From the NCBI GenBank assembly GCA_021399445.1, contig JAJTUQ010000005.1, forward strand, positions 5,208,001 through 5,272,000: a DNA stretch of 64,000 nucleotides. The letters run 5' to 3'. The notes under the pieces are model-generated. The model made no database searches. It worked only from the letters and a program-made list of their open reading frames with translations, and was not told where the DNA came from. Positions 630-34,861 of the stretch are shown here, in pieces. Numbering within the stretch: the first letter of the stretch is position 1; every line of letters starts with the position of its first letter. The stretch comes from Xylogone sp. PMI_703. Its lineage: Eukaryota > Ascomycota > Leotiomycetes. The position numbers and the translations under genes were made by a program.

Positions 630-3131
630 CTATTCAGCGCATGAGGCCTTCACTGAATCTCCGACACGAATATACACCCTCTCCTCGGACGAAGACTTAA
701 CGCAACACATATGTTCTCCAAAAAATACCTTATTATCAAACCTCCTTGTCTTTGCCAATGTAACAAACGGCTCCTCATTTCGCTCCGCTGTATCCTGGTC
801 CACACACACCATTGAACACCGCCGACAACTCCCCAACATCTCAAACACATGGTCCACTTCTCCTACTCGCAGATGGGTCCATGTATCTTCAATATATGGT
901 ATTGAGACGGTGGGAGAGGAAGATCCAATCACAATATTTGCTCGGAAAACGGAATGATGTGCTGGCTTTCCGCCTTTTCGGGTGATCTGGGAGTTTAGAA
1001 AATCGATAGAGAAACGGGTTATGCAGAGAATAGGACTCTCGTTCGAGAGAAGAATTGAGCGAGGAATAGGCTCTGAGGCAGTGGAAGGCGGTGATGGAGG
1101 TGGTGTAGAGGGCAAAGCTGGAAGTAGTTGTGGATGCATTGGTTGCGATTTAGACTTCAGTTGGTGTTGTTGAAGGTGAGCTTTGGAGTGCCTCTGACTG
1201 AGACCAGAACCACCTGCTGGAAAGCGAGCCAGGTGACAGGGAACTCCGAGAGCAGTTGTGAAGAATTCAGTTACATGTTCCAAGAAATAAGGATAAGCCT
1301 CAATATTCTCAGTGCAGACGTTCGATGGTCGACTGTCCAAAGTTGAAGGGCCTGAAAATAGAGGTATGCATATTTCAGGGTGGTCCCGCGTGTTCTTATC
1401 ATGGTCATAAAACCTAACCCGCAATAATCCTTCCTTAAGATCGATATCTGGCTTTAGTAAAGCCATTTGAGGGTATTTTTTCTGGCTCAGTGCCTTTCCA
1501 GTACCTGAATGCACTAAACACCATTCTCTATCCCAGGCTAGCCCCTCCTCCTTTACTTCCCATGATGTATCTGGAGGCACCACATAACCGCCGCAACTCT
1601 TGATGGGGTATACTGTCAGGCTCTCAATGAATAAACAACTCCGGTTTTGGGTAGCCAAAATAGGACTACTAAGGTCATTCCATGTCATCTGCTCCACAAA
1701 GAACTCTTTTATGAAAGCAGTAAACGTATTGACATCGGTCATATTGCTCATTGCCCCTAGACTAACGCGAATAACGCCCGTTGGCTTTCCTCCTATCCCC
1801 TCGTTATCATTACCGCATCGCTGTCCTGCCGAGAAATTCCTTTTCATTTCCCAAGGCTCAAGATCCAGATGATGAGCTATTCCACCTGGGTTGCACAAAC
1901 CTCCTGTTCGAAGATGGATATTTTTGATTGTTGCCAGTTTTTCGACTTCAGAGTTGCTAACCCACATACCATTGCTATCCTGTATGTTGAATGCAATTAC
2001 TGGACCTTGGACCCGTGAGTCCCCGTATGGTTGTGGTGTTGAATTCGTGTATATCTTGCACACAGGTCGACCGTTGCTATGTTGTAGTGAAGAGAGTCTC
2101 TTATATAATTCGCTGGCGAGATACATCGTGTGCTCTGAAATCCTGCCCATTGACTTATAGATGCGCTGGTGTGCATCTAGAGCACTATCAAGTGCTAGTA
2201 TGCTATGTATCGGTAGAGTGCCATCTTCTAACTGTTCATGGATAGATTGGTCTTTTGACATATGCCATTGCTCTTGTATACAGGAAACCATATCAACCGT
2301 GCCCCCGCCAAAATACTTGCGTTTCGTCAAAGTACTTCCAGACGGTTTGCGTACTACGAGTGCACCCAGATTCGGGAACCCAAATATCTTGTAGAAGCTG
2401 AGCACAGTGAAATCGGGAGCTTGATCAGAATTACTCAGGTCTAGCTGCGATGTCGATACCAGTGCCGCAGCATCGAAAAGAGTGTAAGTGTGTCTTTTGG
2501 CTTGCCTTATTTTATTCGCCCAAGAAAGAGGCAATCGACGACCATTCATGTTAGATTGTCCTGGATAGGCGAAGAGACCGGGCATTTCGACCGTTGCTTC
2601 GACTTCGCTATCTCGAGTTACCATCCATCCATCCACCTCCTCGTCTGACCGAAGACATCTGCTTCTAGAGGCGCCTTCCCTGACACCAACTAAGCTTGTA
2701 TGGGAGTCTCGGTGATAATAGTACGAGAACCCATTTTGACATGCCCGGAATCCATCAAGCACCAATTTGATCCCCGCAGTGGCATTTGCAACAAATACCA
2801 AGTCGAATTTTTCAGGATCAGCGTTTACGAAACGCAATGCCCGAAGTCGTACATCATCAATGCGCTTAGAAGATAATATTGAGGATGATGAAGTAGAATG
2901 AGGATTCCCATAAAGTCCGGATATCATTGAGCTAGCAAAGCTGTCAACTAGTGACTTCGCATACAGCGTGGTACCTGCATGGTCAAGGTACGTTGCCCCT
3001 ATGATATTTGGTCAGTTTGCGATCGACTAATCTCATATGGCATCATAACACGATGTACCTTGGAGCATAGGATACTCGGTCTCTCGAATGGCATCGATAT
3101 TATCATTGTAATGATTCTGGGTGCTGAGCAT
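630..3131 (-). CDS. hxB: Molybdenum cofactor sulfurase (HxB type)
   Basis: Converts the dioxo Mo cofactor to the sulfido form needed by xanthine-dehydrogenase-family hydroxylases. Two exons: 3131-3059 and 2998-630, with a 60-nt intron (donor GTACAT, acceptor ATAG), giving 813 aa, close to the usual fungal length. The junction yields EYPMLQGATYLDHAGTTLYA, the family N-terminus. Order: PLP-dependent cysteine-desulfurase (NifS-like) domain with the lysine in TVLSFYKIFGFP, then MOSC_N beta-barrel (VYPIKSCGGYVV) and MOSC domain (CRRCSMVCVDQ; FGEHMCCV). ATG 3131 is chosen because it opens the conserved N-terminus. Physically linked to hxnS, whose product needs this enzyme. Its upstream region carries the cluster motif at 3450-3466. 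Established knowledge: in A. nidulans hxB serves both purine hydroxylases. Very sure of the family. Confidence 0.92.
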
Positions 3132-3871
3132 TTCTGTCACGTGATGCTGTGGGATGGAGTTGATATCACCAGAGACGACGCATTTCCGGATTCTAGTTCT
3201 GCGCTCTTGTGAGTGCTCCCTTGTACACGTTGACTTGTGCTGTTGTGATGCTCCTGCCACGGATAACCTTTATCGGCCGTTTTACTCGAGTAGATGCCTG
3301 TGTGGTGCCACGCTGATTACGCTTGTTCCAGATGCTGCGCACATGAATGCCGGGGAACAATGGCCGGGATTTGGCCGATGTTTAGTTACCTGTAGCCGCT
3401 TAGCTTTTCTGCAGTCGTTGTTCGTTGGTTCCTAAGAATAATGTCACTTTGCCAAGAGTGGGCGGCATCAGTTACATACTGTAGCTCAGTGGTACCACCA
3501 CTTTTGCGAAGCCCCTCTTAAGATGGGGGACAATGACTAACAAGATGGGCGATGAGCTTCGATCTTGACTCCTCTCGAAGCTTGTAAGGTCTAACTGCAA
3601 TCAGTAAGTAGCTTCATCCTAGCTCCGGGAACACTGACTTGTCCCTACTGCACTATACGATATTAAAGACATACATTAAAGCGTTATTACGAACTATTAG
3701 ATAATGGAATTACTTTGTAGTTTTACGTGAGCTGAGCCCCTCAAACCAGTTATGAAAATCGACCATAATCCCAATCCGGATAGGAATACCCCGAATCGTG
3801 AGTAGCCCGTGATGTGTCTTGGGAACAATGCGATATGAGATTATTTTACTATGAGTGCGAAAGTCCATCGA
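3132..3871. promoter_or_regulatory. hxB upstream region
   Basis: 740 bp between the start of hxB and the 3' end of hxnM. It contains the cluster motif at 3450-3466 on the hxB strand (GCCGCCCACTCTTGGCA), about 320 bp before the hxB ATG. A GGATAA element lies near 3258. No further gene seen. Confidence 0.55.
3450..3466 (-). promoter_or_regulatory. Candidate HxnR operator upstream of hxB
   Basis: GCCGCCCACTCTTGGCA on the minus strand. The block CCACTCTTGGCA is identical to that in the hxnX/hxnY intergenic copy, and the hxnT copy agrees through CCACTCTTGGCA as well. Function is inferred from recurrence in front of pathway genes. Confidence 0.5.
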
Positions 3872-4984
3872 TTATGATTGTCCCTGCTTCTTCAGAATCT
3901 CTCCAGAGGGGGCTGGCATCATCGCTCCCGCTGGCGCGGTATTTTTGCTCTTAAAATCATCACACATTTCTGCGAATGTCACCCATTCCACACCTTCATG
4001 CTTATTGATATGTTCAATGATTCTATACCATAAAGCGTTAATATAAGTATTGACATAATAAGTCAATGCGGAGTATCGTACCTCTCATGCATCAATAGAA
4101 CATGCGGCCGTCCAGAAACATCTGGATGGATTGTCATCGGGAAGATAAATTCATCGTACTCTCTGTAGAAGTAATCAAAATGATCCTGGGTAAATCTCTG
4201 TGAATATTGCGTTGTGAAAAGTTGTAACAATTTATCTTACCTTCCAGATGTCCTCAATATCTCGAGGGTTGACCCAACCATGACTGTTCGCCGAATTCTT
4301 GATGAACATCATCGGTGGTAAGTCGTCAATATACCAACTACCCGGAATCTCAACTAGGCCCGTCATCTTTCCCTTGACTAGAGGCTTCATCCACTCCTCT
4401 GCCTTCTTCGAATAGTCGATCTTCGTCCATGTATCACCGGTTCGTAGCCAGTACATTTGACAATCATGATGGCTCATACTATGGTCATACTCAATCCCAT
4501 AACTAAGTAGCAGTTCTGCCCCAGCTTCGCTAGTTTCCCACCAAGGAGCAACACTTCCTCGGGGCGGCTTGCCACAAAACTCAGTGAGTAACTTGAAGGT
4601 TTTATCAAGTACGTCTTTCTGCTGCTCGAATGTCATGTCGGAGGGGTTTTCATGCGAGTAGCCATGCAACCCGATCTCATGGCCAGCATCACGGACCATA
4701 GCACATTCTTCTGGGAAGGTCTCCAGCGAATGGCCCGGAATAAACCAGCTGGCTTTGATATTGTATTTGTCAAATAACTTTAGAAGTCGTCTTGTTCCAA
4801 TTGTCCCCGCCCAAAGACCTGTAATTAATATGTGTGAACAAATGCATTACAGAAAACTCAGAATTGAGTGTTTTTCACCTCGTGAGATGTCACTTGTAGA
4901 GTCTTCGCCTCCATAGGAACCAAGCCAACCAGCAACAGCATCAATATCAACCCCATAAGAACAAAGAACGCGCTTCTTCCCCAT
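3872..4984 (-). CDS. hxnM: Cyclic imide hydrolase, polysaccharide-deacetylase fold (HxnM)
   Basis: Four exons (4984-4879, 4818-4241, 4185-4082, 4022-3872) sum to 939 nt, 312 aa. The protein opens [20 protein letters not shown] and carries the deacetylase/PuuE-type features: an early YGVDIDA aspartate segment, [14 protein letters not shown] (HxxxH metal ligands) at about residues 103-116, and a late VLLMHE histidine. Known in A. nidulans: HxnM hydrolyses 3-hydroxypiperidine-2,6-dione to alpha-hydroxyglutaramate, the ring-opening step. A PuuE-like allantoinase or chitin deacetylase shares the fold, but there is no signal peptide and the neighbours are hxn genes. It is divergent from hxnW across a 537-bp promoter. 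Confidence 0.85.
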
Positions 4985-5207: not shown

Positions 5208-5208
5208 A

Positions 5209-6555: not shown

Positions 6556-8517
6556 CTAGTTCCTCATTACCTGTTCGATAACCTTTGCCGCACCTAGAAC
6601 CTTTTCCTCTTCAAGCTTCCGACCAACTATTTGTAAACTAATCGGATGGCCACTCATAGTCGCTGGGTCATACAATTTCCAGTTGAATGCATCTATCTCG
6701 CTCCTTGGTTCATAAGGAGTAGATGGGATTGGATCTTTCTCCGCAGAGATTGTATCTACAGGGAAAGACAAGGCTGTATAGTCTAGCACATTCCAAACTT
6801 TGGTATAACCGACCCAACTGTAATAGTGTTAGTTATTGAGCAAACAGATGCATGTAGTCTCTGCGCAACTTACCGAGTTGTTCGGTGTGGGACAGCACTA
6901 TGTGGCATAGTTGGCATTAAGACGATATCAACAACACGTCCGGATTCAGGCCCTTTCTTTGAATTCCATTTATCAAGATACGCCTTCTGTACAGCGAACT
7001 TTTGCTTGTTGAGTTGCCAGTATTCATAGACTGAAAATGGGCCGCCACGATTGACAAGCGCTTCTACGTGAGGTATAAATGGCTCCCCACCTGCTGTGAC
7101 AGCACGACGAACGTCTTCACCACCGTCAGCAATGTAGAATTTATCCTTTGGATCAGTCAGTCCATATACTCAATCCCCACAAAACAGATATATTACTAAC
7201 CATAATTGCTATGCACTCTTTATGGTATGACGGCTCCCACTCCACAATTTCATGGCCAGCCGCCTTCAGTTTAGCAACTAATTCATTCAAGGCTCGTTCG
7301 ATAGGGGGATGAGGTTTTATAACACCATCATCATGCAATACACCGATTACTAGAGGCCTGGATTGGATCTCTGTATATGCAGAATCCCTCCAAGGGATGG
7401 GAACAACTCTGGGATCCAAAAGTGAGGGCTCGACATTGATTACGGCTTTGGTGATTGCAGTAAGTGATGATAAATTTCTAGTCATGGGTCCAATTGAAGA
7501 AGGGACGTGCTCTTGCCCTTCTGTGGAAACAGGGACTCCTTCATAGGGCATTCGCGCACTCTACATCGAGTGAAATTAGCGTATCGTAACTAGAATATTT
7601 CTGGAGCCAATAATACTTACGCTTGGTTTTAAACCATAAAATCCATTAATAGATGCAGGGATTCTGACTGATCCTCCGATGTCTGTGCCCCAGCCAAGTA
7701 TAGAACCTTTCAAAGTTAGCAAAGCACCTTCTCCCCCCGTCGAACCACCGGGTGTGAAAGCAGGATTTCGAGGATTCGTCGTTAGACCAAATAGCGGATT
7801 CTCAGTCTCACACCACTGAAGGAAAGGTTAGTTACGTAACAACCAGCTATGTAGCTATAGTAATGGAAATATAGTATGGGGAAGTCTGCATACCATGATA
7901 CTTTGGGGTAAATTCGATTTAGCAAGCACTACCATGCCTAAATCCTGCAAGATTTTGACGACAACGGCGTCATCCTGAGCAGGTCTGAAGGCCATGCCCA
8001 CATACCCGAGTGTAGTATCAAGTCCCTTGACATTGAATTGATCTTTGACAGTAACCGGTATGCCGTGAAAAGGCCCAACGGTCTCACCGTTTTCCAGGTA
8101 AAACTTATCAAGCTCTTTGGCACGTTGCACGGCAGCTTCAAAGCATATCTCCGTTAAGCAGTTCGTCTAGAATCCGAGGGTGAGCATCCGTGGCATTGGA
8201 CCGGAAGGTTAATCCCAAGAAACTTACTGCCTTATGAGCTGCCGCGGCCCTGGATACGATAGTTAATATTTCAATGCTTTGCAATGTGTTGCGATAACTT
8301 ACCTCCTGATATACGCAAGGACAACTTCTTCTGCTTTTAATTTTCCTGCACTCAAAAGTCCAGCCAAAGTCTCGATATCATCGATATCCGTTATCGGATC
8401 ACTAGCCGGAATTTCATCCTTGAGATAAGGTGCAAGTGCGGCATCCCGAATTGCTCTTTTTGACTCTACAACCTTCTCCCACGATGATACAGCGGCTCTC
8501 CCTAGTGCGTCACCCAT
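6556..8517 (-). CDS. hxnN: Amidase-signature hydrolase (HxnN)
   Basis: Seven exons (8517-8303, 8249-8228, 8166-7894, 7815-7621, 7560-7201, 7145-6874, 6817-6556) total 1599 nt, 532 aa. The amidase-signature triad is visible: Lys in GIPVTVKDQF, the cis-Ser in GGSTGGEGA and the nucleophile Ser in DIGGSVRIP. Length matches the GatA/acetamidase family. In A. nidulans HxnN acts on alpha-hydroxyglutaramate, giving alpha-hydroxyglutarate and ammonium, so this step releases the ring nitrogen. The 22-nt exon 2 is unusually small, but both its splice sites are good. It is followed on the same strand by hxnV upstream, and its 3' end faces hxnW 155 bp away. A different amide substrate is possible on sequence alone; the context supports HxnN. 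Confidence 0.86.
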
Positions 8518-8904
8518 TCTGAATCTGGTATTATAAAAAAAATTTTTTCACTCTTTGAAAGTAAAGTTTATCTACACATGAAACTGAGTCCTTTTAGTTA
8601 GGAAAGGTTGAGGGTGGGGTGTGATAAAAGGCCGATACGGTTCATTAGTAATAGCATCGGGAAAAGATGATATGGCAGCGGTAAAATCTCTTTTGCTCAA
8701 AGATTTGTCCGATATCACAATCCAATAAAGGACGGGCGAATCTAGGGAATCAATATGTTTCATGACGGAAATACAGAGCAGTTGCCAAATAATCAAGATT
8801 ACTATATGTTAAGATTTACTTAGAAACACTCTTACACTAGGCTCTCGTCCAGCTTTATCATTCTTATCCAGAATCTATATATTAGTTATATATATTGGAA
8901 CAGT
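8518..8904. promoter_or_regulatory. hxnN upstream region
   Basis: 387 bp between hxnN and the end of hxnV. It carries GTGGGG at 8614-8619 followed 2 bp later by TGATAA (8622-8627), about 100 bp before the hxnN ATG: a possible HxnR/AreA pair. A partial CACTCTTAC occurs near 8826. No gene seen. Confidence 0.45.
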
Positions 8905-11118
8905 TCAACTCTTTAAAAATCCTCCATAGTAAGCATCTAAATAATCACATGCCTTCTCCGCTTCTCCACTGGTCCACCTTGCAATCGCACCTACATAACC
9001 GTCTGGTCTTACATTTACCACTACTACTTCATCCTCACCGCAACCTCCAAGCCATTTATCTGTACATGTCTGCTTCTCCCCTGGCACATCATCAAGATAG
9101 AACGTCCATCTACTATCTTGCAACATGGACGGTAAGTCTGCAATCTCAATCTGGTCCTTGGGAATCGTGGTAATAAGTGCGGGGGTAAAGAGTTTACTGA
9201 CAGCGGTATACCTCTGTGGTTGCAAGAATTCGTCCGATTCTGGAGCAGGGATATTCAAAGTAGAATATGACCTGGAAGCAGCTAGAGAAGCACGGCCAAG
9301 GACGGAGTTGGTGGAAGTAAGATGTGAGGATACAGTACTCAGGAATGCCGAGGATGAATGAGGATCCCGGGTAAAGAAGAAAATTCGGAACTGACCAAGC
9401 ATCGGAATGTCTAGCTGGATATCAACTGGATTTGCATCAATATACCGCGTAACTCTGGCTGGAAGAAGCAAAGCTCCCGGTCGAAGACATCCCCCAGAGT
9501 TTACACCATTTGCTGATTCAATATTGAGGACGTTAGGAGCATACACGGCTCCAATGCCGCAGATAAAAGCAGTGTTGGCGGCAAAGTTAGCTGCCAAAGC
9601 TTCCGAGTCTCCTTCTGCAAAGGCGTTGGCGTGCTCAAAGTCGAAGTTTATCAAGTCCTGGGCAATCTTGCGACGTTCATGCGTGTATGTCGAGAGAAGA
9701 GATGGAAGCGCGAGTCCTCGGATTGCAAGGTTCAATTTCCAAGAGAGATTGAAGGAGTCATGCATGCTGACATTCATGCCTTGCGCTGCTTTAGGAGAGT
9801 GCGTATGTGCAGCCTTTAATGTAATTAGTAATAACACAAGACAATGGAGCTTCTAGTTGGCCTACATCTCCTGTGATAAATACTCTTTCCATCTCATCAG
9901 TGAAGCGGTTAGCTACTCGTTGACCGACCTTGTAGACGCTGAACCATTCTAAAATACAATTTGTTAGGAAAGAAATGAATACACCCAGGAGTTATGTAGA
10001 CTTACCAATGCTTTTCCAGGTTAAGGTAAAAGGAGCAATGATTTCTTGAGCTCTCTTCATCACAAACTCCTGACTAGCAGCCTCTGATGATAAAACCTCA
10101 TGCATGCCAGGATTTAGCTCAATGTATAATCTCGTCATGTTCCTCTCTCTAGGAATACAAAGAATTGTTCCTTTCTCCTCCGAATGAATTACTACCTTGC
10201 TCCATAGATCCGGGAAATCCGTCTCGATAACTCCTAAGAAGAGAATTAATGCAAAATTAAACCGAAACGTATGGAATAAAGCTCATACCATCCAGCACAC
10301 CCCACGGAGCACGAGCTTTATCGCCTACTAAATCTACTCCGGGTATGCTTGTTCTGACCTTTGATCTAGAGCCATCACAGCCTACCAGATATTTTGCTTT
10401 TAGAATCCTTTGGGTACCATTGAGACTATCATTACACGTGATCTCCAATGGTTCCTTCAAAGTAGAGCCAGGGGTGTAGTGATCGAATGGACTACTTCTT
10501 GTAACTTCGATGCCTCTATGTCTTAGATCTTCAATAAACAGGTCTTCAATCATGCCCTGATGGACTAAGAGGATAAAAGGTTCCTTAACATCAACAAGGG
10601 GCGGATAGTGCACTTCTCGACGTGTGCGGTGAAGAGGTGTGGTTGGCGTTGAGTTCTAGATAGAACACCAGCTGTTAGAACATGTTAAAAGAATAGAGGA
10701 TGTAAATTAATTGGAAAGAATGGTGATCTACCCAGAAGCATATATCATATATCTTCACTCCCTGTCTCATTAACGGGTCTACCAGTCCTAGCTGCCTCAA
10801 TGTTTCAATAGTCTTGGGTTGCAGTCCATCTGCGCGACCAGTTGAGGTTTTATCACTTCGATCATCTACTATAACCGGTCTAACTCCATATCTTGCTAGA
10901 TTAGAGCTATTACAACAATATGTAGTTAGAGATGATGAGTTTATTCTCTTTAGTTATTGGATTTTGTTGCAGCAAATATAGAATAGAAATAACACCTACG
11001 CTACCATCAGTCCCGCGGGACCAGCACCAACCACGACGACATTTTCTACATCAGAACTATTTCCATTTAAACCGTCATTTCCATTCGTATATGACTCATT
11101 TTGTGCGCTTGGAGACAT
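8905..11118 (-). CDS. hxnV: FAD aromatic monooxygenase, phenol hydroxylase family (HxnV)
   Basis: Six exons (11118-11000, 10906-10732, 10655-10289, 10233-10006, 9948-9866, 9813-8905) total 1881 nt, 626 aa. Features in order: dinucleotide-binding [14 protein letters not shown] at residues 32-45; substrate/FAD motif [13 protein letters not shown] (DG motif); GD motif VFITGDAAHTHSP before the helix [16 protein letters not shown]; and the C-terminal thioredoxin-like dimerisation domain typical of phenol 2-monooxygenases (residues 430 on, [11 protein letters not shown]). In A. nidulans HxnV hydroxylates 2,5-dihydroxypyridine to a trihydroxypyridine; assignment here rests on family and position. 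It is divergent from hxnS over 972 bp. Confidence 0.87.
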
Positions 11119-12090: not shown

Positions 12091-15000
12091 ATGGCATTGC
12101 CCTTCTCCCCTCGCAAAGCTCCTACTCTCCCTCCGGCCTTCGAGAAGATCCAATCTTTAATTGAGTCCGAATTCACTGAATCTACTTTACACTTTTACCT
12201 CAATGGCGAAAAAGTTGAACTTCAGAATCCAAATCCGGATTGGACTCTTTTGGACTTCATAAGGTCACGGCATGGAAACAAAGGCACCAAGCTGGGGTGC
12301 GGTGAGGGCGGATGCGGTGCTTGCACCGTGGTCCTCCAAACCGTCGACACCAGAAACAAAGGCAGGATAAAGCACATAGCTGTCAATGCCTGTTTATATC
12401 CTTTGATAGGAGGTATATATAATACTATGATATCAGTTCATTGGGTACTTCTGCTGACGGCGTTTTAGTTGTCGGGAAGCATTTGATTACTATTGAGGGG
12501 CTGGGCAATATCGAGACTCCCCATCCCCTACAGGAGAGAATTGCAAAGCTACATGGGTCACAGTACGTTATAGAATGTGGATTTTGATGGAACAGACTCA
12601 AGATCGCCCGCTAATACTTTAGGTTAGGTGTGGCTTTTGCACTCCAGGCATTGTCATGTCCCTGTACGCACTGGTGAGGAATGCATATGATCCGATATCA
12701 AAAACATTCAAGTTATCAGGGAGTGATATCGAACTGGAAGGACACTTAGACGGGAATCTCTGTCGATGCACCGGCTATAAGCCCATCTTGGCTGCTGCAA
12801 AGACCTTCATAACAGAGGACTTGAAAGGGCAGTTGGTGGAGATACCGTCAGGCGCAGTGACAGATGACGCCGTCACCAAGGACGAGGCAGATGTTGCATA
12901 TAGATCTGAGGCAATTCCAAATGATCTTCTTAAAAAGTCATCCGCCTCATGTGGTAGACCCGGAGGTTGTTGCAGAGACAACCCGAATGTATCGAGATGT
13001 GCTGGGGGAGAATCTTCTTCCGACGAGACAACTCAAGATGCATCAGATTCATCTGCCGCTGAAGAAGTCTCTTCAAATAGCAGTCTAAGTGTTGAACTAG
13101 AAACCGAGATCAAATCCGATTCTCTTAATAATATGAAAGAGACTTCGCAACCTAAATTTAGATCATACTCTCCATCCACTGAGTTGATATTTCCACCCGC
13201 TTTATGGAAATTCCAAAAGACTCCAATATGCTACGGGAATTCAAAGAAGATATGGGTCAGTCCAACCACTCTCGGCCAACTCCTCGCCCTTAAAAACCTG
13301 GATCCAACAGTCAAATTGGTCGGTGGTGCTAGTGAAGTTCAAGTCGAGGTCAAGTTCAAGAATTCGCAGTTCGCCGTATGCGTCTTCGTTTCAGAGATTG
13401 CCGAACTGGCTGAGATGTATGTCCCTGAAACTGAGGAAGAGCTTGCCTCAATGACAGAATTTGTTATTGGCGCAAACACACCCCTGACTGAGATTGAATA
13501 TGCCTGCACGGCACTTTATTCAAAGTTAGGCAGACGGGGGCTCGTCCTCGAAGCATGCAGGAAACAACTCCGTTACTTTGCTGGAAGACAGATCCGCAAT
13601 GCTGCGTCTTTGGCTGGAAATTTGGCAACAGCTTCACCTATCTCAGATATGAACCCCGTATTGCTAGCTGGTGGTGCCACAATTATGGCGCGCAGTGTAT
13701 CTCAAGGAGAGTTTCCACTCCCCCTGGAGTCATTCTTTCTATCATACCGAAAAACCAGTCTTCCACCTGATTCTATAATTACTAAGATACGGATCCCTAT
13801 ACCACCACCGGAAGCAATAGAAGTTGTAAAGGCATACAAACAAGCCAAGAGAAAAGATGACGACATCGCCATCGTCACAGCTGCTTTTCGAGTCCGAATG
13901 GACAAGGACGGAAAGGTGGAGAGTATATCCCTAGCGTATGGTGGAATGGCTCCTCTCACTGTGCAGGCAAAGAAAGCCCAAACAGCATTACGAGGATTGA
14001 AATGGTATGACTCGAGAACACTTGATGCAGGTTTACGGGCCTTGGCAGAAGACTTCAGTCTTAACTTTGGAGTCCCCGGGGGCATGGCCACTTATCGTAA
14101 GACCCTTGCATTATCTTTCTTCTTCAGATTTTGGCATGAGGTTGTGAAGGAGCTCGGATTGGGAGAAGTGGACGAAGGCTTAATCCAAGAGATCCATAGA
14201 GGGATCTCATCTGGAACTAGGGATAACAGAAATCCTTATGAACAGCGGATTGTTGGTAAACAAATTCCTCATCTCTCATCACTAAAGCAGAACACTGGAG
14301 AGGCAGAGTATCTAGACGATATGCCTCATCAGGATCGGGAACTATATGGTGCATTTGTATTCTCAACAAAAGCCCACGCCAAATTCGAAGTAGACTGGAC
14401 ACCAGCAATTGGGCCAGGCCTCGCAGTTGGGTATGTGGATAAAAACAGCATTGCAAAGGAGCTGAATGTGTGGGGATCAGTTGTCAAAGACGAGCCATTC
14501 TTCGCAGACGGAGAAGTACTTTCTCACGGCCAAACAATCGGCATGGTCTATGCTGAGACAGCATTACAGGCGCAGGAAGCAGCGCGACTAGTCAAAATCA
14601 CTTATGAAGATCTACCCGCAATCCTAACCATCGATGAAGCAATCGAAGCAAATAGCTTCTTTCCCCACGGACGCATGCTGAAGAAAGGTCTAGCAATCGA
14701 TGGTAGGATTGATGAAGCATTCAGTAAATGCGACCGGATTTTCGAAGGCGTAACAAGAATGGGAGGTCAAGAGCATTTCTATCTTGAAACAAATGCCGCG
14801 CTTATCATTCCTCACTCTGAAGATGGCACCATGGAAGTGTGGTCTTCGACCCAAAATACAATGGAGACACAAGAGTTCGTCAGTCAAGTCACAGGTGTAC
14901 CAAGCAACCGTATTAATGCGCGAGTGAAGAGAATGGGCGGTGCCTTCGGTGGTAAGGAGTCAAGAAGTGTGCCTATTGCGGCAGTTCTGGCTGTCGCAGC

Positions 15001-19579: not shown

Positions 19580-19588
19580 GCTCTTACG
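19580..19588. repeat. Left target-site duplication of the 807-bp element
   Basis: GCTCTTACG directly abuts the left inverted terminus and is repeated exactly at 20396-20404. Confidence 0.6.
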
Positions 19589-20395: not shown

Positions 20396-20404
20396 GCTCT
20401 TACG
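20396..20404. repeat. Right target-site duplication of the 807-bp element
   Basis: GCTCTTACG, identical to 19580-19588. Confidence 0.6.
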
Positions 20405-22717: not shown

Positions 22718-25700
22718 ATGGCCAATAATCAAGGCATTAGCCAGAATGAGCACGTCAGCATTACCGTTCCTGATGCCTCACAGCCAGCGTCCAAAGGAAG
22801 TATCAAGAAGTTTGTCTGTACACACCCAGGGTGTAACAAGGCTTTTACCAGGTCTGATCATCTTCAGAGACATGGTCTAAATCATGGTCCTGGCAAGAGC
22901 ACTTGCCCTCGGTGTTCAGTTCACTTCAACCGACCTGACCTGCTGGATAGGCACATGGCCCGGCACAAGCAGAAGGATGATGAAGCTGGTGGCTACGGAC
23001 TGGGAGTGGTAGAGACAAGAAAGAGGATGTGGCGTGATGCAGACGGCAATATAGTCACGAAACGACCAACTCTTCCTCATAACCGTACTGTCCTGAATAA
23101 TGACACTCCAGAGTCTCATCAGCAAGAAAGTGCCTCTAGAAGCTATGAGACTCAACAGAATTCGGTACCGTTGTCTCCTCCACGATCAATGATGAGCTTG
23201 GGTTCGAGTGGAAATGGTCACCCGCAGATGACTAACTTGGTTAGTATGCCGGAGGATCAATGGAGTTCAGAGCAAATTCCACAATTCAGGAACGATACTC
23301 TTGACATGTGCGATTTCCTAGCCAACTCGACCTGGGGTTCCCAACCTTCACAACCATCCATGATTATGAGCAATACACCGTATGATGATATGTTTAATCC
23401 AGACACAGGTGATGATTGCTTGCCTTAGAGACAGTTTCATTATGCTGATGAGATTATAGCGAGTTCATTCAATATGCCTTTCACAACCATGAATAACTAC
23501 AATTGGTTGTTTGATGTAAATGGCATCCCGCAAGATATGCAAATGCCTGTCAGTGGGGAACCAATGCAGTGCCGTGCATATAAGCCCCTGCCCAGCCCAA
23601 GACTATACAACTCAAACTTCAATGGCAACTTTAATAGCAACAATCACTATAGAGCACCCCTCACTCAAGAAATGCTGTTTACCAGCGGGTTAGCGGCGCC
23701 GTTGCAAAATGGAGCATTTTTTGAACAACAATCCGGCCATATGCAAATGGTTTCAGAAAGACAGGGTGAAGTTGTTAACATGTCGATGCCGGGCACCTCT
23801 ATATCTAGCAACTCACAAGCTCTCTCGCCGGATGATGATTCATCTCCTGGAAATTTCTCTGGACAGTATTGCCCCACTACTGTCTCACAGACGTCCGTAT
23901 CCGAATACCAGCCATCTGTAAGGCAGCAGAGCGTTCCAAGTCGAGTGGAGCCTGCATCAGCACTCGATCCCTTACGAACATTCGGCTCATCGTTACCTGC
24001 CAGACGTCTCCCAACTATTGATGATGTTTCTCGAAATAAGATTCTGAATCTCATCGAACAAGCAGCAGCAAAAACTCCAGAAGGGTCTTTAATTACCCGA
24101 GACCACCCACTACTTTCACTCCCGGCCATGCAAAATTATCTTAATCTCTTCTTCGGTCGGTTCAATGTTACATATCCGCTTCTACACCAGGCAACTTTTG
24201 AACCTTCTCAAGTAGAGACACTGCTATTACTTTCAGTTCTTTTACTCGGTGCGACTTACGGTGACAAAGCTGGTCACAGATTAGCCGTGTGCATCCACGA
24301 TATTCTTCGAGCTCAAATATTTCAGAATGCCGCCTTTAAGGCCCAGCCAGATCTATGGATGCTCCAGACCATTCTTCTTGTGGAATGTTTTGGGAAATCA
24401 AGAGCTGGACAAGCACAACATGATATGGCGCACTTATTTCATGGATTGTTAATCAAGTGAGTGGTTACGTCACATTCTATTCCTGGATATCAATAATGAA
24501 TGGTACTAATGTTCCCCTAGTTTGATACGAAGAAGCGATTGCCAGACTGTCCAGATACCTAACTTCGAAGGGGATGTCGGAGAGCTAGAATCAAATTGGC
24601 GACGATTCGTCGATATTGAGCAACGAAAAAGGTATTGAGATTCTTCCTCCAAAATAATTTTTGAGCTGAAGCTTACTTCAAATAGGTTAGCTCTGCTCTG
24701 TTTCCTCTGGGACACACAGCATGCAGTTCTTTTCTCCCAGTCACTGTGTATGTCTGCATTTGAGTTAAGGATATCACTTCCTGTAAATCCCACAACCTGG
24801 GAAGCGGAATCTGCTGAGGAATGGTACAAGCATTTCAAGAAGGAGACGGAGACATCTTTCTTGTCTGCTTTGAAAGTACACGTTAATCCGGGTTCTGCAT
24901 CGCTGCCGCCACATTTGAACGCCATTTCTCGGCTACTTATTCTCCATGGGTTAATGTCTATCTCATGGGATATGAAGAGAAGGGACCAAACTTCACTTGG
25001 TTAGTTTTACGTACTTATACACTCATGTCTTTTATAATGCTGACAAGTCCAGGATTCGCCGGTCCAAACGCACAAGAACGACAAACCAGGCTCGCACAAT
25101 CCTATGACGCCTGGAAAGCAGATTTCGATACCTACTGTATGAGCATGACGCTGGCACTCAAAGACAACGCAGCGCTGAAGAGCGAATTTACTCGATTCAG
25201 TACGGCCAGTATAGCTATATACCATGCCGCTCACATAATTCTTAATGTCGAGATTCTGGACTTACAGATATATGCTGGAGCTCGCCACATCATCGGTCGG
25301 CCAGTTACGAGAATTGACTACGAGCGATCCCGTCGTATTCTAAAGCAATGGACCAAGCCAGGAGCATCTACAGCTGCTGTAAAAGCTTCCTGGCATGCAG
25401 CACATCTCTTGCGTGATGGAATAATGAACCTTGACAGCTGGGATGTCAATGATGTCTTCCACTATCCATGGTGCCTGTATCTTGCTACCCTCAGTTTATG
25501 GTGTTTTCACTTTGCTGGGAGCGATAGGAATGATGGGACAAGTGAGAATGGTATATCAGATCTTATGCAAAACCATGATGGAATTCCTTGGGATGCCCAG
25601 GCCGAAATGAACGCACTTGTCAGTGGAATGACGAGTGTGACGCCTGAAGGGTTATGGAGAATGATAGGCAAATATTCTACGAGTGGCTTGATAGTAGTGA

Positions 25701-25807
25701 TGGCGAAGTATCTGAGCACAGTGAGATGGGCAGTCATTCACGAAGGGATGAAAGTACTGAGAGGATTGGTCGCGGAGCGGGCCATTAACGCGTATCTTTT
25801 GGTTTAA
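22718..25807 (+). CDS. hxnR: C2H2 zinc-finger transcription factor (HxnR)
   Basis: Five exons (22718-23408, 23460-24456, 24521-24631, 24686-24999, 25053-25807) total 2868 nt, 955 aa. Two N-terminal C2H2 fingers: C34-x4-C39-x12-H52-x3-H56 with helix RSDHLQR, and C63-x2-C66-x12-H79-x3-H83 with helix RPDLLDR. Then a long Ser/Asn/Gln-rich linker, and a fungal-specific TF domain (about residues 430-750; RLPTIDDVSRNKILN, GATYGDKAGHRLAVC). HxnR is the pathway-specific activator in A. nidulans. The first intron (51 nt, GTGATG donor, GCTGATG branch, TATAG) is needed to remove an in-frame TAG at 23426-23428. The ATG at 22718 is preferred over a GTG further up. Confidence 0.87.
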
Positions 25808-26572: not shown

Positions 26573-28407
26573 ATGGGTGTCGACTCTGCTGAAGTAGTTG
26601 AGCCCAAGATGGCTCCCATTGCCACATTCGATAATGATTCAAAAGTTGAAGAGGGCCAAGTATTCAATGGTATTGATCAGAAATCTGAGCGTTCTTTTGG
26701 TGAGTATATATGATGGATAAACTGTATATAGTGATGTTAGAGCTTACAACGGCCCGAAATAGTCCGCAAGCTAGACTTTTATCTTCTACCATTCCTATCT
26801 TTGGTACGCTGGCACAGAGATAAGTCTACCATTATTTACACAATTCTGATGAGATATTTTAGATGTACTTTTTCAACTCCGTAGACAGGGTAAGTATTTC
26901 CCCTTTATTTGTCTATCAGTCTTTGCTAACAACGTGATTAGAGTAATCTTGGGAATGCCAAGACAGATGGAATTGATATCGATCTACATTTTACTGGTAA
27001 CGAATACTCGTTGTTGATCCTTTTATTCTATGTGCCTTTCGGATTATGTGACCTACCTCTAAATCTCCTTACCAAACTATGGTCCGGAAGAATTATGTTG
27101 CCAACTTGTAAGCTCATCCCTAGTTTCTTCTGGTAAGTTCTGGTGCTGAAATGACGATTAGTGATGGTAACATGGGGATCTCTTGCACTTCTTCAATGTG
27201 CTGCGAAGAACTTTGCCGGAATTTTGGTTATCCGGCTGCTCCTGGGGTGAGTGTCTCATGATATTTGACAAATTCTTCATGCTTAGTATGTAATAGTGCA
27301 TGCGAAGCTGGCTTCTTTGCTGGCGTGGTTTTCTACATGACGCTTTTTTACACTCGCGGCGAACTCGCTTTCCGAATCGCAATCTTCTTTGGATCAGCTC
27401 TTCTGGCAGCAGCTTTTAGTGGTTTAATTTCATACGGTGTATTCCAAATTCATCATACCGTTGTGAAGGGTTGGATGTGGCTTTTCATAATAGAAGGAGG
27501 GATGACGGTCATTACAGGCGTTATTGCTTACTTCTGGCTCCCTGGAACCCCAGAAGACGCATGGTTCCTGAATGAGGATGAGAAAAGGGCAGCAAAGGCT
27601 AGGTCCTTGAGAGATGGAAGTAAGAAAGTTGGAACTGAGTTCAGCATCAGGCAGGCATTCATCACTTGGAATAATAGACGATTCATAGTGTGGTGCATCG
27701 TGGCTTTCACCTACCCGGTAGCATTTGCAACAACATCCAATTTTCTGCCACAGGTGAGCAATAGTTTAGCTCCTTACTATGAACTCAGTTATCAGTAGCT
27801 AACATCAGAATCAAAATAGATTGTCCAGCGTCTCGGATATTCAACGGTGAAAACTAATCTTTGGACTGTGGCACCAAACGCTGTCGGCTTCGTGATTCTC
27901 CTCGCGGTTTCCAAATCCTCCGACTACTTCCGTGAAAGGACCTATCATATAATCTTCTCTTTAGTACTATCTCTCCTTGGCATGATCATCTTAGCTAGCA
28001 TTGATGTTCTTGAGAACAAAGGCGTGGCCTACTTTGCCTGCTTCCTGATGGCTGGGGGCTCGTATATCCCGTCCGTCCTAGTTCACTCATGGCACAACAA
28101 TAACAACCTCGAAGAAAATTCCAGGGCTGCAACTACAGGTTTCCTTGTCGGATTGGGCAACCTAGGGGGAATTTTAAGCGCAGCAACTTTCAGAGTGGAG
28201 TATGCACCTGCCTATAAGCCAACCTTGATTGCTACTAGCTGCTGTAACGCCGTTTGCATCATCTTCACCTTGGGTTTAGGATTGTGGATGAAGAGGGAAA
28301 ATAGGAAGAGAAATATGGAGCAGGGTGTTAATATTAGAGCTCAAGACGTGGATACGGATACCTTGACCGATGGAGAGAATAGCCCTCAGTGGAGATTTTT
28401 CACATGA
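26573..28407 (+). CDS. hxnP: MFS permease, anion:cation symporter family (HxnP, TNA1-like)
   Basis: Seven exons (26573-26699, 26763-26803, 26863-26889, 26942-27107, 27162-27246, 27297-27753, 27820-28407), 1491 nt, 496 aa, about 12 membrane segments. After a soluble N-terminus come VRKLDFYLLPFLSL and VDRSNLGNAKTDGI, the ACS (Dal5/TNA1) signature, then LLLGACEAGFFAG, and the central cytosolic loop WLPGTPEDAWFLNEDEK. Members import nicotinate, allantoate, panthothenate and similar anions at the plasma membrane. Placement between hxnR and hxnX, and two motif copies upstream, point to nicotinate or an intermediate as substrate. The 27-nt exon 3 is small but its boundaries restore the DRSNLGN signature. 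Confidence 0.87.
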
Positions 28408-28808: not shown

Positions 28809-30350
28809 TCATAGCCTCGGCTGGAGCTTGGCATCATATTCTACCTCATCTACTGCATCTATGACTGGCGGCCAGAACTTATCGACTTCCTCCTCGCACC
28901 TCCATCCCAATAGCTGCGGCGCAAATGCTTTGTCTCGCCATGCCAGTGCCTCCCCCTCTCCGGCAGCCCTCAAGACCTTATCTCTCTCTTCCTGTTCTGG
29001 CCCATCATGCAGATGGTAGAGCCATTGTTGACGATTGCCCTTTTGAACTACTAGCTCCGTCCTTGGGGCACGAATCTTCTGATAGAGGTCCAAGAGCTTG
29101 CATTTCACTTTCGGAGTCATAGGCCCTGTCCACCGAGAAAATAATTCACCGAGAACCGCACCATCCTCGAGAGACATCCCTGCTCCTGAGGCAAGGTAGG
29201 GCAAGGTGGCGTGCACGGCGTCGCCGAGCATTGTTATGGTGCCGGATGGATGTGACCATTGCTCCATGCCAGGTCGGATGCAAAGTCGCCATTTGTACAC
29301 TGATTCACAGAGACTTAGGAGCTTGGGGATTCTGGGATCCCAATCCTTATACAGAGCTCGCATTTCCTCAACATTTCCTTCGGTTATGTTCTGTCCTTCG
29401 GGGATATCGTCGGGTACGAGCAGAACCATATTGAAGAGCTCTCCGCCTCGGAGAACGTAGTTTACTGGACACAATATGAGCACCTATACTCTGGGTTAAT
29501 GGTAAAGAAAGTACCTACCGGCATGTGCATCTGGTCCTAACCAATAATTGACTTGTGGCTGCGTAACGAAGCTTGCAAGCTCTGAGTCTTTCATCATTTC
29601 CTTAGTAGAGAGCAACAATCTGTACGCCAGATCACCAGTCAAAAGCGGTGGATCCTCTTTTCCAAGCAAGACTTCTCTCAAACGACTGTTAATACCATCT
29701 GCACCCACAACGAGATCTGCAACATGTTCCTCTCCATTCTGTAGCACGACTGTGGCTGTTTCTCCACTGGGATTCGCCCTCACATCTGTGACCCTTGCCC
29801 TGACTTTCAACTTGGCACCTAGTTCCACAGCTCGCTCAAGAAGACATTTATGTAAATTCGCTCGGTGAAAGTCCCAATAAAATGTTCCCGGATAGTTAGA
29901 TGCCGATTCTGCAGTATCCATTGACGTTATCAAGTTACCTTTCCATCCTATAAAATTGACCTTAGAAGGTCTTGTTGCATATTTAGCTAGGCGATCGTAT
30001 AGACCCCATCGTTGAAGGATTAGACTACTATTTGGGAGAACTTGAATGCCAGCCCCAACCTATTCCTTACTTGTCAGAATATTCCTACTACTGTTGGACC
30101 AGGTTTCTGCTAGGGATTATGGCCACGTACCTCTCCAATTTCTTCTGCGGCTTCAAATACTTCTATATCATGCCCGGCGAGGAGAAGTGCAATTGCAGCC
30201 CCAAGACCTCCTAGCCCCGCGCCAACGACTATAATCTACCATCGATGTGTGTGAGTTTGTACGCATAGAGTCGAGTTCGTTGTGCAATTTTACCTTTATT
30301 TTACTGTCCGCACTCCGCTGTACTCGTTCTTTTGGAGTGACAGTACTCAT
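28809..30350 (-). CDS. hxnX: FAD monooxygenase, salicylate/6-hydroxynicotinate hydroxylase type (HxnX)
   Basis: Four exons (30350-30294, 30235-30131, 30059-29519, 29464-28809), 1359 nt, 452 aa. Rossmann IIVVGAGLGGLGAAIALLL at residues 20-38, the DG motif LVVGADGINSRLRE, and the GD motif ITMLGDAVHATLPYLASGAGMSLEDG: the group A flavoprotein monooxygenase set in order. The last intron uses TCCAG at 29469-29465 to join DAHA to VNYVLRGGE, in frame with family sequences. In A. nidulans HxnX turns 6-hydroxynicotinate into 2,5-dihydroxypyridine by decarboxylative hydroxylation. Divergent from hxnY, sharing two strong motif copies. C-terminus lacks a clear PTS1 signal (ends QPRL). Confidence 0.87.
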
Positions 30351-30944: not shown

Positions 30945-30960
30945 TCTCCCCACTCTGAAC
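30945..30960 (+). promoter_or_regulatory. Candidate HxnR operator B (hxnX/hxnY)
   Basis: TCTCCCCACTCTGAAC, 12 bp past copy A in the same orientation. It has the full CCCCACTCT core. Confidence 0.5.
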
Positions 30961-31307
30961 GGCTAGGTTGTGGTGGAAACCTTGTGAGTCGCGGAGGTTG
31001 CAATAAGGGCTCGGAACTGGCATGCAGGCCAGAAGCTAAGCTCACTTGTGTGTGGATCATGCATAGTTGCCCCAGATTATTGTCGCGTGAGGGATTGGAC
31101 AGATTTGGTAACAAATTTCTATGGGCTAGATCAGGCTTGCTAGGACATGCTCCGCGAATAAGTCCTGTACAGAGTTCAGTTCATAACTCCCATGAACAGA
31201 GTGCTCTTTCCATAACTCTTTAGAATAGCTATTCCAAACAATATACACTTGTCTGGCAGATCTACAAGGTGACTATAGATAAACTATTACTTACTTTATT
31301 CAACAAT

Positions 31308-32528
31308 ATGCCCGCCAGTGCACCCCCGATTCTCGACTTCTCTGGTGAGCAAAAAGAAAAGAAAATCGATTTATAGCTGTGAAGTTACCTTCTAACTATT
31401 GCCAAAAGTATTTTATGGAGACAATAAGGAGGCAAAAGCTAAGTTGGTTGATGATGTGAGGAGATGCTGTCTACACAATGGTTTTTTTCAGATTACTGGA
31501 CATAGCGTCCCAGCGGAATTGCAAGAGCGAACATTAAGATGCGTGAAGGAATTCTTTGCATTGCCGCAGGAGGAGAAGGACATGATACACAAAGGTCTAA
31601 GAATTTACTAAGCTCTCCTGCCGATATTGTTGAATGTGGAACAACAGACTGATTTTCGCGGCAGACAAGAATACTTGGAACAGAGGGTATGACTCAATGG
31701 GTTCTCAGATATTGGAAGCTGGTACAAATCCAGATCTAAAAGAAGGCTTCTACATCGGGGAAGAAATCTCCAAAGACCATCCATACTTCGTATATAAGAA
31801 GCTAAATAGTGGTCCAAATGTTTGGCCTGTGGGTTTGGAAGATGTTGAGACTTTTAGAGCTACATCGATGGAGTACTACAAAGCTATGCACTCATTGGCG
31901 AGAGATGTTCTCGTCGTTATTGCGCAGACATTAAACCTAGGTGAAGACTATTTTCAGAAATATACGACAGATGCAGTTGCAACACTACGCTACTTGCATT
32001 ACCCACCCCAACCAAAAGATTCAGATGAAAAGCTGTCGAGAGGGATTGGTGCTCACACAGATTTTGGATCAGTGACGTTGCTCATGCAGGATGAAGTTGA
32101 TGGACTTCAAGTTTGGGAGAAGTCAACAAATGAGTGGATTGACGTCGTCCCCGTAAAAGGAGCGTATGTGGTGAACTTAGGAAACATGTTTATGAGATGG
32201 TAAGTTGGACACGATTGCCACTCTCCAAAATATAAATTACTATTTACCAATTTGTTATAGGTCTAATGATCATTACATCTCTAATCTCCACAGAGTTATC
32301 AATAAGTCTGGCCGGGAGCGATACTCTGTCCCGTTTTTCTACAGCGGCAACCCAGACTACATAATTGATTGCCTGCCCAATTGTCGTGCGGAAGATGAGC
32401 CAGCCAGATATCCACCGATTAGTGTAGAAGAGGCGGTCGGAGGAAGTTATAAAGCCAGTTATGGAGCTGCTGAAGCTTTTAAGAAGCAAAACACCGCACT
32501 TATCACTCCACAATTAGTTACAGTCTAA
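31308..32528 (+). CDS. hxnY: 2-oxoglutarate/Fe(II) dioxygenase (HxnY)
   Basis: Four exons (31308-31344, 31409-31594, 31665-32199, 32261-32528), 1026 nt, 341 aa. N-terminal DIOX_N segment (GFFQITGHSVPAEL; EEKDMI) and C-terminal double-stranded beta-helix with HTDFGSVTLL (H-x-D iron ligands), SNLHRVINKSGRERYS (distal His, and Arg/Ser for 2-oxoglutarate) and VPFFYSGN. This is the isopenicillin-N-synthase-like family. HxnY is one of the oxidative enzymes of the A. nidulans pathway; its step among piperidine/pyridine intermediates is not claimed here. The second intron has an atypical GTCTAA donor, but it restores the conserved KNTWNRGY segment. Confidence 0.86.
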
Positions 32529-33076: not shown

Positions 33077-34861
33077 ATGGTCGAGGAGTCAAAGAAAGTC
33101 GATGAAATATCTCCCACGGTTCAAAGGACAGAGTCCTATGGGGAAGGGATCACTCTGAAACTGGATGACAAAGAGAATCGGGAGTTCTATGGCAGTTCCA
33201 TCACAGATTCATATCGACTAAAGTCGGAGCTTGTGAGCAAATGTCTTGAAGAAATCGGAATGGGAAGGTAGGTTCAGTAAAGGCTGACATCGTTCTGCAA
33301 CTTGTGAAATTAATCTATTTGGGTAGGTGCTAATGCCTGAAAATAGGTATCAATGGGAACTTTTCGTCGTGACAGGATTCGGATGGATCACAGATAATTT
33401 GTAAGTGGTGCCTCTCAAATACATGCCAAAATTCGAAGATTGACGGGACGTATTAGTTGGTCTCAAGGTATCGGTACTATTCAACCATCAGTCAAGCTCG
33501 AGTTTGCAGATGTCACCAGAATTGGGTTCAGTTCCATCGCCTATTATTGTGGTCTCATCGTTGGAGCATCTTTCTGGGGCATTTCAGCCGACTTCATCGG
33601 GCGTAAACCTGCTTTCAATGCGACTCTCCTGATCGGTGGCATTTTTGGAGCAGCAGTTGCCGGCGTGAGTAACTTCCCGGGATTCTGCGTTATGTGGGCT
33701 ATCATAGGGACGGCAGCTGGAGGAAATGTGCCAGTTGATTCTATGATATTCTTGGAGTTTGTGCCCGGCTCTCATCAGTATCTCCTCACAGCATTATCAG
33801 CATGGTGGAACTTTGGTCAAGTCATCGTCGCGTTGATCGGATGGGTTTTTGTGGCCAACTTCAATTGCCCAGCCGATGCTACTCCTGCAACCTGCAAGAA
33901 GTCAGATAATATGGGATGGAGATATACTATAATAGTCCTAGGAGGAATGGCCCTTGTGTTTGCTTTGATTCGAATCTTTATTTTCAAGATGCCAGAATCA
34001 CCACGTTATCTACTTTCTAAAGGAAGAGATGCTGAAGCTGTGGAAGCTGTAAACTACGTGGCACGCAGAAATGGAAAGCCCGAGCCTTTGAATTTGGAGA
34101 TGTTGCAAGATATAGATAGAGAGCTCGGTATTACGGTTAACCTGGATGAAGGCCGAGCCGGACTCACTCGTACAGAGATCATCAAAGAGAATTTGAAGGA
34201 CTTCAAATCAGCTAATTATAAGGATCTATTTGCTACTCACAAGCTGGGTAGACATACTGCCATAATCTGGTTTATTTGGCTAACCATTGGTAAGTATTCG
34301 CCGCCTTGTTTATTAGAAGCTAAAGCTCATGAACGATTAGGTATCGCCTATCCTCTCTACTTTAACTTCCTTCCCACATATCTCGCACAGAAATTTACGG
34401 AGTCCTCTTCTTTATACCTCACTTATCGAAACTATTGTATCGAGTCCGCGGTCGGTGTAGTTGGTCCCATATCTGCCGCCTTTGCTGTCAATACCCGCCT
34501 CGGTCGTCGTGGCATGATGGGAGTGTCTGCAATTGTCACTGGAGTGTTTCTCTTTGCCTATACAGCAGCTCGAACATCGGCAGCGGATCTCGCATTCTCC
34601 TGTGTGACAGGCCTTCTAGGAAACTTCGAGTACGCCATTATGTATGCTTTTACTCCAGAATCATTCCCTGGTCCTCATAGAGGCACTGGTTCTGGGACAG
34701 CAGCGACACTCCTTCGCTTTGGTGGACTGTGTGCCTCTCTGATTGGGACTTACACTAATTTTACGGTGGTACCAATATATGTCAGTGCTGCCTTGTGGAT
34801 TCTTGTTGGTATTGTAAGCTTCGGATTGCCATTCGAGACACATGGTCGGGCAGCCATTTAA
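33077..34861 (+). CDS. hxnZ: MFS permease, SV2-like (HxnZ)
   Basis: Four exons (33077-33267, 33347-33400, 33457-34289, 34341-34861), 1599 nt, 532 aa, about 12 membrane segments. GFGWITDNF near residue 78, the SADFIGRKPAF loop between TM2 and TM3, GTAAGGNVPVDSMIFLEFVP and the late FTPESFPGPHRGTGSGTA are typical of SV2-like / general substrate fungal porters. The last intron (51 nt) could be read through in frame, but its GTAAGT donor and ATTAG acceptor are good. It differs in family from HxnP, so two transporter types serve the cluster. It is the last gene with the cluster promoter motif. Substrate inferred only. Confidence 0.85.

What the first reader, a model, noticed from the sequence alone, without database searches (positions are those of the whole stretch)
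630..34861. Complete single-locus nicotinate degradation cluster (all eleven hxn genes plus hxB)
Hand-spliced models give hxnM, W, N, V, S, T, R, P, X, Y and Z in one block, all with intact catalytic motifs, plus the Mo-cofactor sulfurase hxB. In A. nidulans, as I recall the published work, the eleven genes sit in three separate clusters. Here they are one, and the accessory gene for maturing the Mo enzyme is included. This makes the locus a near self-contained route from nicotinate to an alpha-hydroxyglutarate-type product.
Basis: partly seen in the sequence, partly recalled or inferred. Interest (0 to 1): 0.9.

Follow-up and report, generated by a model that had tools for sequence, protein, structure and literature searches.

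The report
Fungal nicotinate cluster with extra sulfurase
A Xylogone fungus carries all eleven genes for breaking down vitamin B3 (nicotinate) at one place, an arrangement already known in a few fungi, but here joined by a second copy of the gene that activates the pathway's molybdenum enzyme.

Summary
Window 630-34861 (Xylogone sp. PMI_703, Leotiomycetes) has unbroken models of all eleven hxn genes plus a Mo-cofactor sulfurase, ordered hxB2-M-W-N-V-S-[HET]-T-R-P-X-Y-Z. HxnS shows the published nicotinate-hydroxylase residues; the genome's two xanthine-dehydrogenase-type proteins do not. One-site eleven-gene clusters are already published (PMC8478523), so that part is not new. Two points are. 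(1) The clustered sulfurase is not the ordinary hxB: a canonical HxB lies on another contig, and the clustered copy belongs to a separate clade. (2) HxnS of Xylogone and four other Leotiomycetes is sister to that of Chaetothyriales; one Leotiomycete clade is rejected, suggesting horizontal transfer or old paralogy, direction open. A HET gene and a Mutator-like element lie between hxnS and hxnT. Function is inferred: predicted HxnR sites are enriched over the cluster (17 against 5.3 expected) but not significantly at hxB2, and a weak test found no hxB2-hxn linkage in other species.

The parts
630..3131 (-). hxB2: Moco sulfurase paralogue, 813 aa, exons 3059-3131 and 630-2998; Aminotran_5 + MOSC_N + MOSC; PLP-Lys motif SFYKIFG and persulfide-Cys motif LCNPG present (roles of the motifs recalled)
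   Evidence: (P0001, same length)
3872..4984 (-). hxnM: cyclic-imide hydrolase (CE4/HpPgdA type), 312 aa, 4 exons
   Evidence: 85% identical to an A. terreus protein, P0294
5522..6400 (+). hxnW: SDR ketoreductase, 253 aa, 3 exons; divergent from hxnM
6556..8517 (-). hxnN: amidase, 532 aa, 7 exons; PVTVKD, GGSTGGE and DIGGSVRIP signature regions present
8864..11118 (-). hxnV: phenol-2-monooxygenase-like FAD hydroxylase, 615 aa, 7 exons
12091..16758 (+). hxnS: nicotinate hydroxylase (XDH type), 1454 aa, exons 12091-12412, 12469-12562, 12628-15173, 15238-15270, 15339-15812, 15863-16758
17099..19297 (+). HET-domain (heterokaryon incompatibility) gene, 704 aa, inside the cluster; no predicted HxnR site in the 340 bp upstream
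19589..20395 (.). Non-autonomous TIR element (23-bp perfect inverted repeats at 19596-19618 and 20366-20388; 9-bp target duplication GCTCTTACG at 19580-19588 and 20396-20404), Mutator-like by its 9-bp duplication (recalled criterion)
21009..22339 (+). hxnT: old-yellow-enzyme alkene reductase, 405 aa, 3 exons
22718..25807 (+). hxnR: C2H2 fingers (one over the Pfam cut-off, two by C-C-H-H pattern) + Fungal_trans regulator, 955 aa, exons 22718-23408, 23460-24456, 24521-24631, 24686-24999, 25053-25807
26573..28407 (+). hxnP: MFS transporter, 496 aa, 7 exons
28809..30350 (-). hxnX: decarboxylative-type FAD monooxygenase, 452 aa, 4 exons, C-terminus PRL
31308..32528 (+). hxnY: 2-oxoglutarate/Fe(II) dioxygenase, 341 aa, 4 exons; second intron donor GTCTAA is weak
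33077..34861 (+). hxnZ: MFS transporter, about 526 aa; C-terminal end uncertain (the gene finder preferred a longer model ending at 35049)

Best explanation
The locus is an intact, single-site hxn regulon for using nicotinate as a nitrogen source. HxnP and HxnZ take up substrate; HxnS makes 6-hydroxynicotinate; HxnX makes 2,5-dihydroxypyridine in the peroxisome; HxnV, HxnT, HxnW, HxnM and HxnN lead by hydroxylation, ring reduction, oxidation, imide opening and amide hydrolysis to alpha-hydroxyglutarate with release of nitrogen; HxnR switches the genes on (steps shown in A. nidulans, inferred here by homology). A diverged paralogue of the Moco sulfurase, hxB2, stands at one end and most likely helps to sulfurate and so activate HxnS when the cluster is induced (inferred). 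The ordinary HxB is kept elsewhere, presumably for the xanthine dehydrogenases. The stated confidence is for the eleven-gene regulon; for the role of hxB2 it is about 0.5.
For: Families and motifs. Spliced frames without stops. HxnS groups with HxnS proteins and apart from the genome's own HxA and XDH2. HxnR has no close full-length paralogue found in the genome: the next domain-length match is 32% identical; only short zinc-finger stretches reach 65%. Predicted HxnR sites GHGGGG: 17 in nine intergenic regions against 5.3 expected, maximum 14 in 1000 shuffles. Each region before an hxn gene or hxB2 has at least one site; the HET gene has none. hxB2 keeps 181 of 189 columns near-invariant among P0017-P0120 and both desulfurase motifs. 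In A. nidulans hxB is unlinked but under HxnR control, and an hxB mutation abolishes HxnS activity (PMC5746545, passages).
Against: No expression or growth data. hxB2's own two sites are not significant (expected 0.65, p 0.134); region by region only M/W and R pass 0.05. Relatives of hxB2 in other fungi were not seen linked to hxn genes: none of 15 contig lengths (P0002-P0016) equals one of the 120 listed HxnS or 120 listed HxnM rows, while three HxnS-HxnM pairs do share one (compared by eye). That test is weak, because only the longest contig of each cluster and capped lists are shown. HxnX ends in PRL, not the SRL of A. nidulans. HxnY has no proven step even in A. nidulans.
Confidence: 0.8

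Rival explanations
1. hxB2 is only a neighbour: an old sulfurase paralogue that happens to lie 740 bp from hxnM and serves another Mo enzyme, such as the second xanthine dehydrogenase on C19.
For: The genome has at least three XDH-type genes and three HxB-like genes. Sites at hxB2 alone are not significant.
Against: Its gap to hxnM is within the range of the other gaps of the block, it has two predicted HxnR sites, and A. nidulans needs HxB for HxnS and controls it through HxnR.
Confidence: 0.45
2. The cluster is a decaying relic, broken up by the HET gene and the transposable element, and no longer acts as a regulon.
For: A HET gene and a TIR element sit between hxnS and hxnT, and the usually divergent hxnS-hxnT pair is in tandem.
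Against: All eleven frames are free of stops, and HxnR-type sites are enriched.
Confidence: 0.07
3. The odd HxnS tree reflects ancient paralogy with differential loss rather than transfer between Chaetothyriales and Leotiomycetes.
For: No donor direction is resolved: EUR+B support 79/94; LEO+Chaetothyriales not rejected, p 0.317. The HxnM tree is uninformative. Only one gene of the cluster gives the signal.
Against: By name, no Leotiomycete species appears twice among the 120 listed HxnS hits (unnamed rows cannot be judged), and the joining branch has 100/100 support.
Confidence: 0.4

Closest known systems
Single 11-gene hxn clusters of Cyphellophora europaea and Hymenoscyphus repandus (PMC8478523)
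   Same: All eleven hxn genes at one site; divergent hxnM-hxnW pair kept, as the paper says for both
   Different: Here a diverged Moco sulfurase gene stands at one end; hxnS and hxnT are in tandem with a HET gene and a TIR element between them; hxnV-hxnN and hxnP-hxnY, divergent pairs in C. europaea, are not. The text read reports no hxB linked to hxn genes; its figures and supplements were not seen.
hxn regulon of Aspergillus nidulans (three clusters; PMC5746545, PMC8478523, PMC9304392)
   Same: Same eleven gene types and the diagnostic HxnS residues tested
   Different: Dispersed in three clusters there, with an unlinked hxB (AN1637) under both UaY and HxnR control
Canonical fungal HxB (Moco sulfurase)
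   Same: Same three domains, PLP-Lys and Cys motifs, most near-invariant positions
   Different: 55-57% identity to the genome's own canonical HxB; separate clade with 100/100 support

Membership tests
hxn nicotinate cluster | Eleven genes hxnS,T,R,P,Y,Z,X,W,V,M,N of the published domain types | tested here: met
hxn nicotinate cluster | Co-induction by a nicotinate derivative through HxnR, ammonium repression | not testable with these tools
   Only site enrichment was computed
HxnS nicotinate hydroxylase | FATAL-His, Pro at the HxA-His985 site, Ser-Gly at the HxA Ala-Ser site | tested here: met
   own HxA and XDH2 show FTALF, His and Ala-Ser
HxnS nicotinate hydroxylase | Reciprocal best hit to A. 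nidulans HxnS | not tested
   No A. nidulans sequence at hand; 66% to an A. terreus protein with the same signature
HxB Moco sulfurase | NifS-like domain with PLP Lys and catalytic Cys, plus MOSC_N and MOSC | tested here: met
Canonical HxB orthologue | Groups with Leotiomycete HxBs | tested here: not met
   separate clade; joint clade rejected, p 0.000676 (groups chosen after the tree). The C12 copy meets it.
HxnX | FAD monooxygenase related to NicC | tested here: met
   best 8gsm and 8x38 (decarboxylative hydroxylases); 8uiq and 5eow (NicC) at E 1.5e-47 and 7.5e-47
HxnX | C-terminal PTS1 | tested here: inconclusive
   Ends in PRL; A. nidulans has SRL
HxnM | Cyclic imidase of CE4/HpPgdA type | tested here: met
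   3qbu, E 2e-132 (sequence type only; activity not tested)
Mutator-like element | TIRs and a 9-bp target duplication | tested here: met
Mutator-like element | MULE transposase in the family | not tested
   Autonomous copies were not sought

The most novel reading that the evidence does not exclude
hxB2 is a Moco sulfurase dedicated to HxnS and induced with it: an old HxB paralogue recruited into the nicotinate cluster, so that a catabolic cluster carries its own cofactor-maturation enzyme and no longer depends on the hxB shared with purine catabolism. The core of the cluster may also have passed between black yeasts (Chaetothyriales) and a lineage of Leotiomycetes.
Probability: 0.4. Interest if true: 0.6.

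Novelty: new variant of a known kind. Interest (0 to 1): 0.42.

Why it matters
Bokor et al. suggest that complete clustering may reflect pressure to integrate the whole hxn gene set (PMC8478523, concluding remarks). A cluster that has also gained a maturation enzyme for its first, molybdenum-dependent step would be a further stage, and would separate nicotinate use from purine use at the cofactor level. The HxnS tree raises a class-crossing transfer between the two groups, Chaetothyriales and Leotiomycetes, to which the two species with published one-site clusters belong; those two species themselves were not in my tree.

Tried and rejected
Pseudogene reading of hxnR (in-frame stop) rejected: the stop lies in a predicted intron. 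Automatic gene models were wrong for several genes and were corrected by hand; the first hxnR assembly began at a wrong start and was mended. hxnS was corrected again by comparison with relatives (1454, not 1451 aa). The 1451-aa version was used; because of it the Glu856 site did not line up.

UaY sites (TCGGN6CCGA) as a mark that separates canonical hxB from hxB2: no exact site upstream of either, so no conclusion. Contig-length comparison for linkage of hxB2 to hxn genes elsewhere: no match, weak test. HxnM tree: too little resolution. Viral contig scan for hxB2: nothing. Literature: by title and start of abstract, (5 papers; 4; 15 of 195 listed; 10) listed no paper on a sulfurase gene inside an hxn cluster or on an hxn transfer between Chaetothyriales and Leotiomycetes; the library lacks most subscription journals, and supplements and figures were not seen. 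PMC12316961 was seen in passages only and has no 'PRL'.
Full report
What was checked. The window is contig C21, 5208001-5272000, of a 50.1-Mb genome. The hxB protein of the window is P0001, recorded for Xylogone sp. PMI_703 on a contig of 5,548,043 bases, the length of C21; Xylogone is a genus of Leotiomycetes.

Genes. Pfam scans of open frames and of six full spliced models give the domain types published for HxnM, W, N, V, S, T, R, P, X, Y and Z (table 1 of PMC8478523, section 5 read), plus a three-domain Moco sulfurase. I rebuilt the models with a small gene finder and by hand. None has an internal stop. Lengths here against A. nidulans: HxnW 253/254, HxnV 615/620, HxnM 312/307, HxnP 496/491, HxnY 341/349, HxnX 452/461, HxnN 532/543, HxnZ about 526/533, HxnT 405/388, HxnR 955/865, HxnS 1454/1396. 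The end of HxnZ and the second intron of hxnY are the least certain points.

Identity of key enzymes. HxnS carries three features that Amon et al. give for nicotinate hydroxylases: FATAL followed by His, Pro in place of His985, Ser-Gly in place of Ala-Ser (PMC5746545 section 2.2 read; tested). The genome's two other XDH-type genes, on C19, have FTAL followed by Phe, His, and Ala-Ser, the xanthine dehydrogenase state. HxnX is closest in the PDB to decarboxylating hydroxylases, with 6-hydroxynicotinate 3-monooxygenase lower in the list; HxnM to HpPgdA (3qbu); HxnV to phenol and 3-hydroxybenzoate hydroxylases. The next domain-length relative of HxnR in the genome is 32% identical. HxnM has an unlinked paralogue on C20, 84% identical over its main exon; the literature describes unclustered HxnM paralogues in other fungi.

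Already known. PMC8478523 reports single eleven-gene clusters in Cyphellophora europaea and Hymenoscyphus repandus, and that hxnN and hxnM are inside the cluster in many Pezizomycotina outside Aspergillus. The one-locus organisation is therefore a known kind. The gene order here is hxB2(-) M(-) W(+) N(-) V(-) S(+) HET(+) T(+) R(+) P(+) X(-) Y(+) Z(+). The hxnM-hxnW divergent pair is kept; hxnS-hxnT, hxnV-hxnN and hxnP-hxnY are not.

The sulfurase. The genome has three HxB-like genes: the clustered one; a full-length one on C12 (57% identity, 55%); and one on C1 with the aminotransferase domain but no MOSC domain detected, nearer to the clustered copy (57%) than to C12 (50%). In the quick tree (62 rows) the clustered copy falls with 15 database proteins at 59-77% identity, from Phlyctema, Coleophoma, three Lachnellula species and unnamed sources (SH-aLRT 96), apart from the canonical HxBs; the C12 copy sits among canonical Leotiomycete HxBs. 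The careful tree (31 rows) used 9 of those 16 clustered-type rows and gave 100/100. Holding the clustered type together with canonical Leotiomycete HxBs is rejected (p 0.000676), so the split looks older than the Leotiomycetes, or the gene came from elsewhere. Limits: the groups were named after the first tree; there is no outgroup; Sordariomycetes are three long-branched rows; no Eurotiomycete HxB was recognised among the 120 hits listed of 3572. The protein looks active: 181 of 189 columns near-invariant in P0017-P0120 are kept (those 104 rows were taken as canonical by rank, and only some were placed on a tree). Whether it is linked to hxn genes in other species I could not find out.

Regulation. 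GHGGGG, the predicted HxnR site of PMC8478523, occurs 17 times in nine intergenic regions before hxn genes and hxB2; 1000 dinucleotide shuffles gave 5.3 on average and 14 at most. Without hxB2 it is 15 against 4.6. Forty 700-bp tiles at 35-63 kb, coding included, average 0.33. Region by region only M/W and R pass 0.05. hxB2 has two sites (expected 0.65, p 0.134). For hxnT only the last 1000 bp were tested, and part of that is the TIR element. The HET gene has none. AreA-type HGATAR sites were counted but not tested for enrichment. The HxnR motif itself is predicted in the literature, not proven.

HxnS history. The window HxnS, Tricladium, Amylocarpus, Coleophoma and Bisporella form one group, sister to Chaetothyriales (100/100), away from the other Leotiomycetes sampled (Botrytis, Hyaloscypha, Cadophora and others). 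One clade of Leotiomycetes is rejected (p 3.3e-10) and so is one clade of Eurotiomycetes (p 7.3e-8) (29 of the 49 rows, simpler model). The groups were tested after a first tree was seen, and the direction is open. I found no mention of this in section 2 of PMC8478523 or section 2.3 of PMC5746545; their supplementary trees were not available.

Insertions. A HET-domain gene lies between hxnS and hxnT; another, 33% identical over 555 positions, lies about 3.6 kb beyond the 3' end of hxB2, in L021. Behind the first lies an 807-bp element with 23-bp perfect terminal repeats and a 9-bp target duplication. The genome search gave 64 matches, including the element itself; most are partial, many of them to its repetitive middle. 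These insertions break no hxn gene.

Verdict. An intact hxn cluster of a known kind in a further host, with a diverged Moco sulfurase beside it as the new element, and a tree signal that suggests transfer of at least hxnS between fungal classes, or old paralogy.

Noticed in passing
L018:3831-5465 (C1:4789831-4791465, minus): A third HxB-like gene with an aminotransferase (NifS-like) domain and the PLP-Lys and Cys motifs but no MOSC domain detected, 1.5 kb from a Fungal_trans regulator.
   Followed up: partly
L019:2853-6665 (C19:6395853-6399665, minus): A second xanthine-dehydrogenase-type gene, 71% identical to the genome's HxA, with a cytochrome P450 and an ABC-transporter frame within about 2 kb.
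   Followed up: partly
window 19589-20395: Mutator-like non-autonomous element with 9-bp target duplication; best partial relative on C1 at 3364893-3365481.
   Followed up: partly
window 41406-42866: Open frame with DDE_1, HTH_Tnp_Tc5 and HTH_ABP1_N domains: a pogo/Tc1-type transposase gene.
   Followed up: no
window 28809-30350: HxnX ends in PRL rather than the SRL peroxisome signal of A. nidulans HxnX.
   Followed up: no
P0177 (Pseudocercospora, Dothideomycetes): Its HxnS falls inside the Chaetothyriales clade, a possible further transfer.
   Followed up: no
window hxnS: No full-identity Xylogone HxnS was listed among the 120 database hits shown, although the neighbouring HxB was; the public annotation may lack or mis-model it.
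   Followed up: no
L021:8972-10000 and window 35417-40947: Flanking genes: zinc alcohol dehydrogenase on the left; enoyl-CoA hydratase, NmrA-like and aldo/keto reductase on the right. One GHGGGG site lies between hxnZ and the right-hand gene, none at 300-629. Whether any is co-regulated is unknown.
   Followed up: partly
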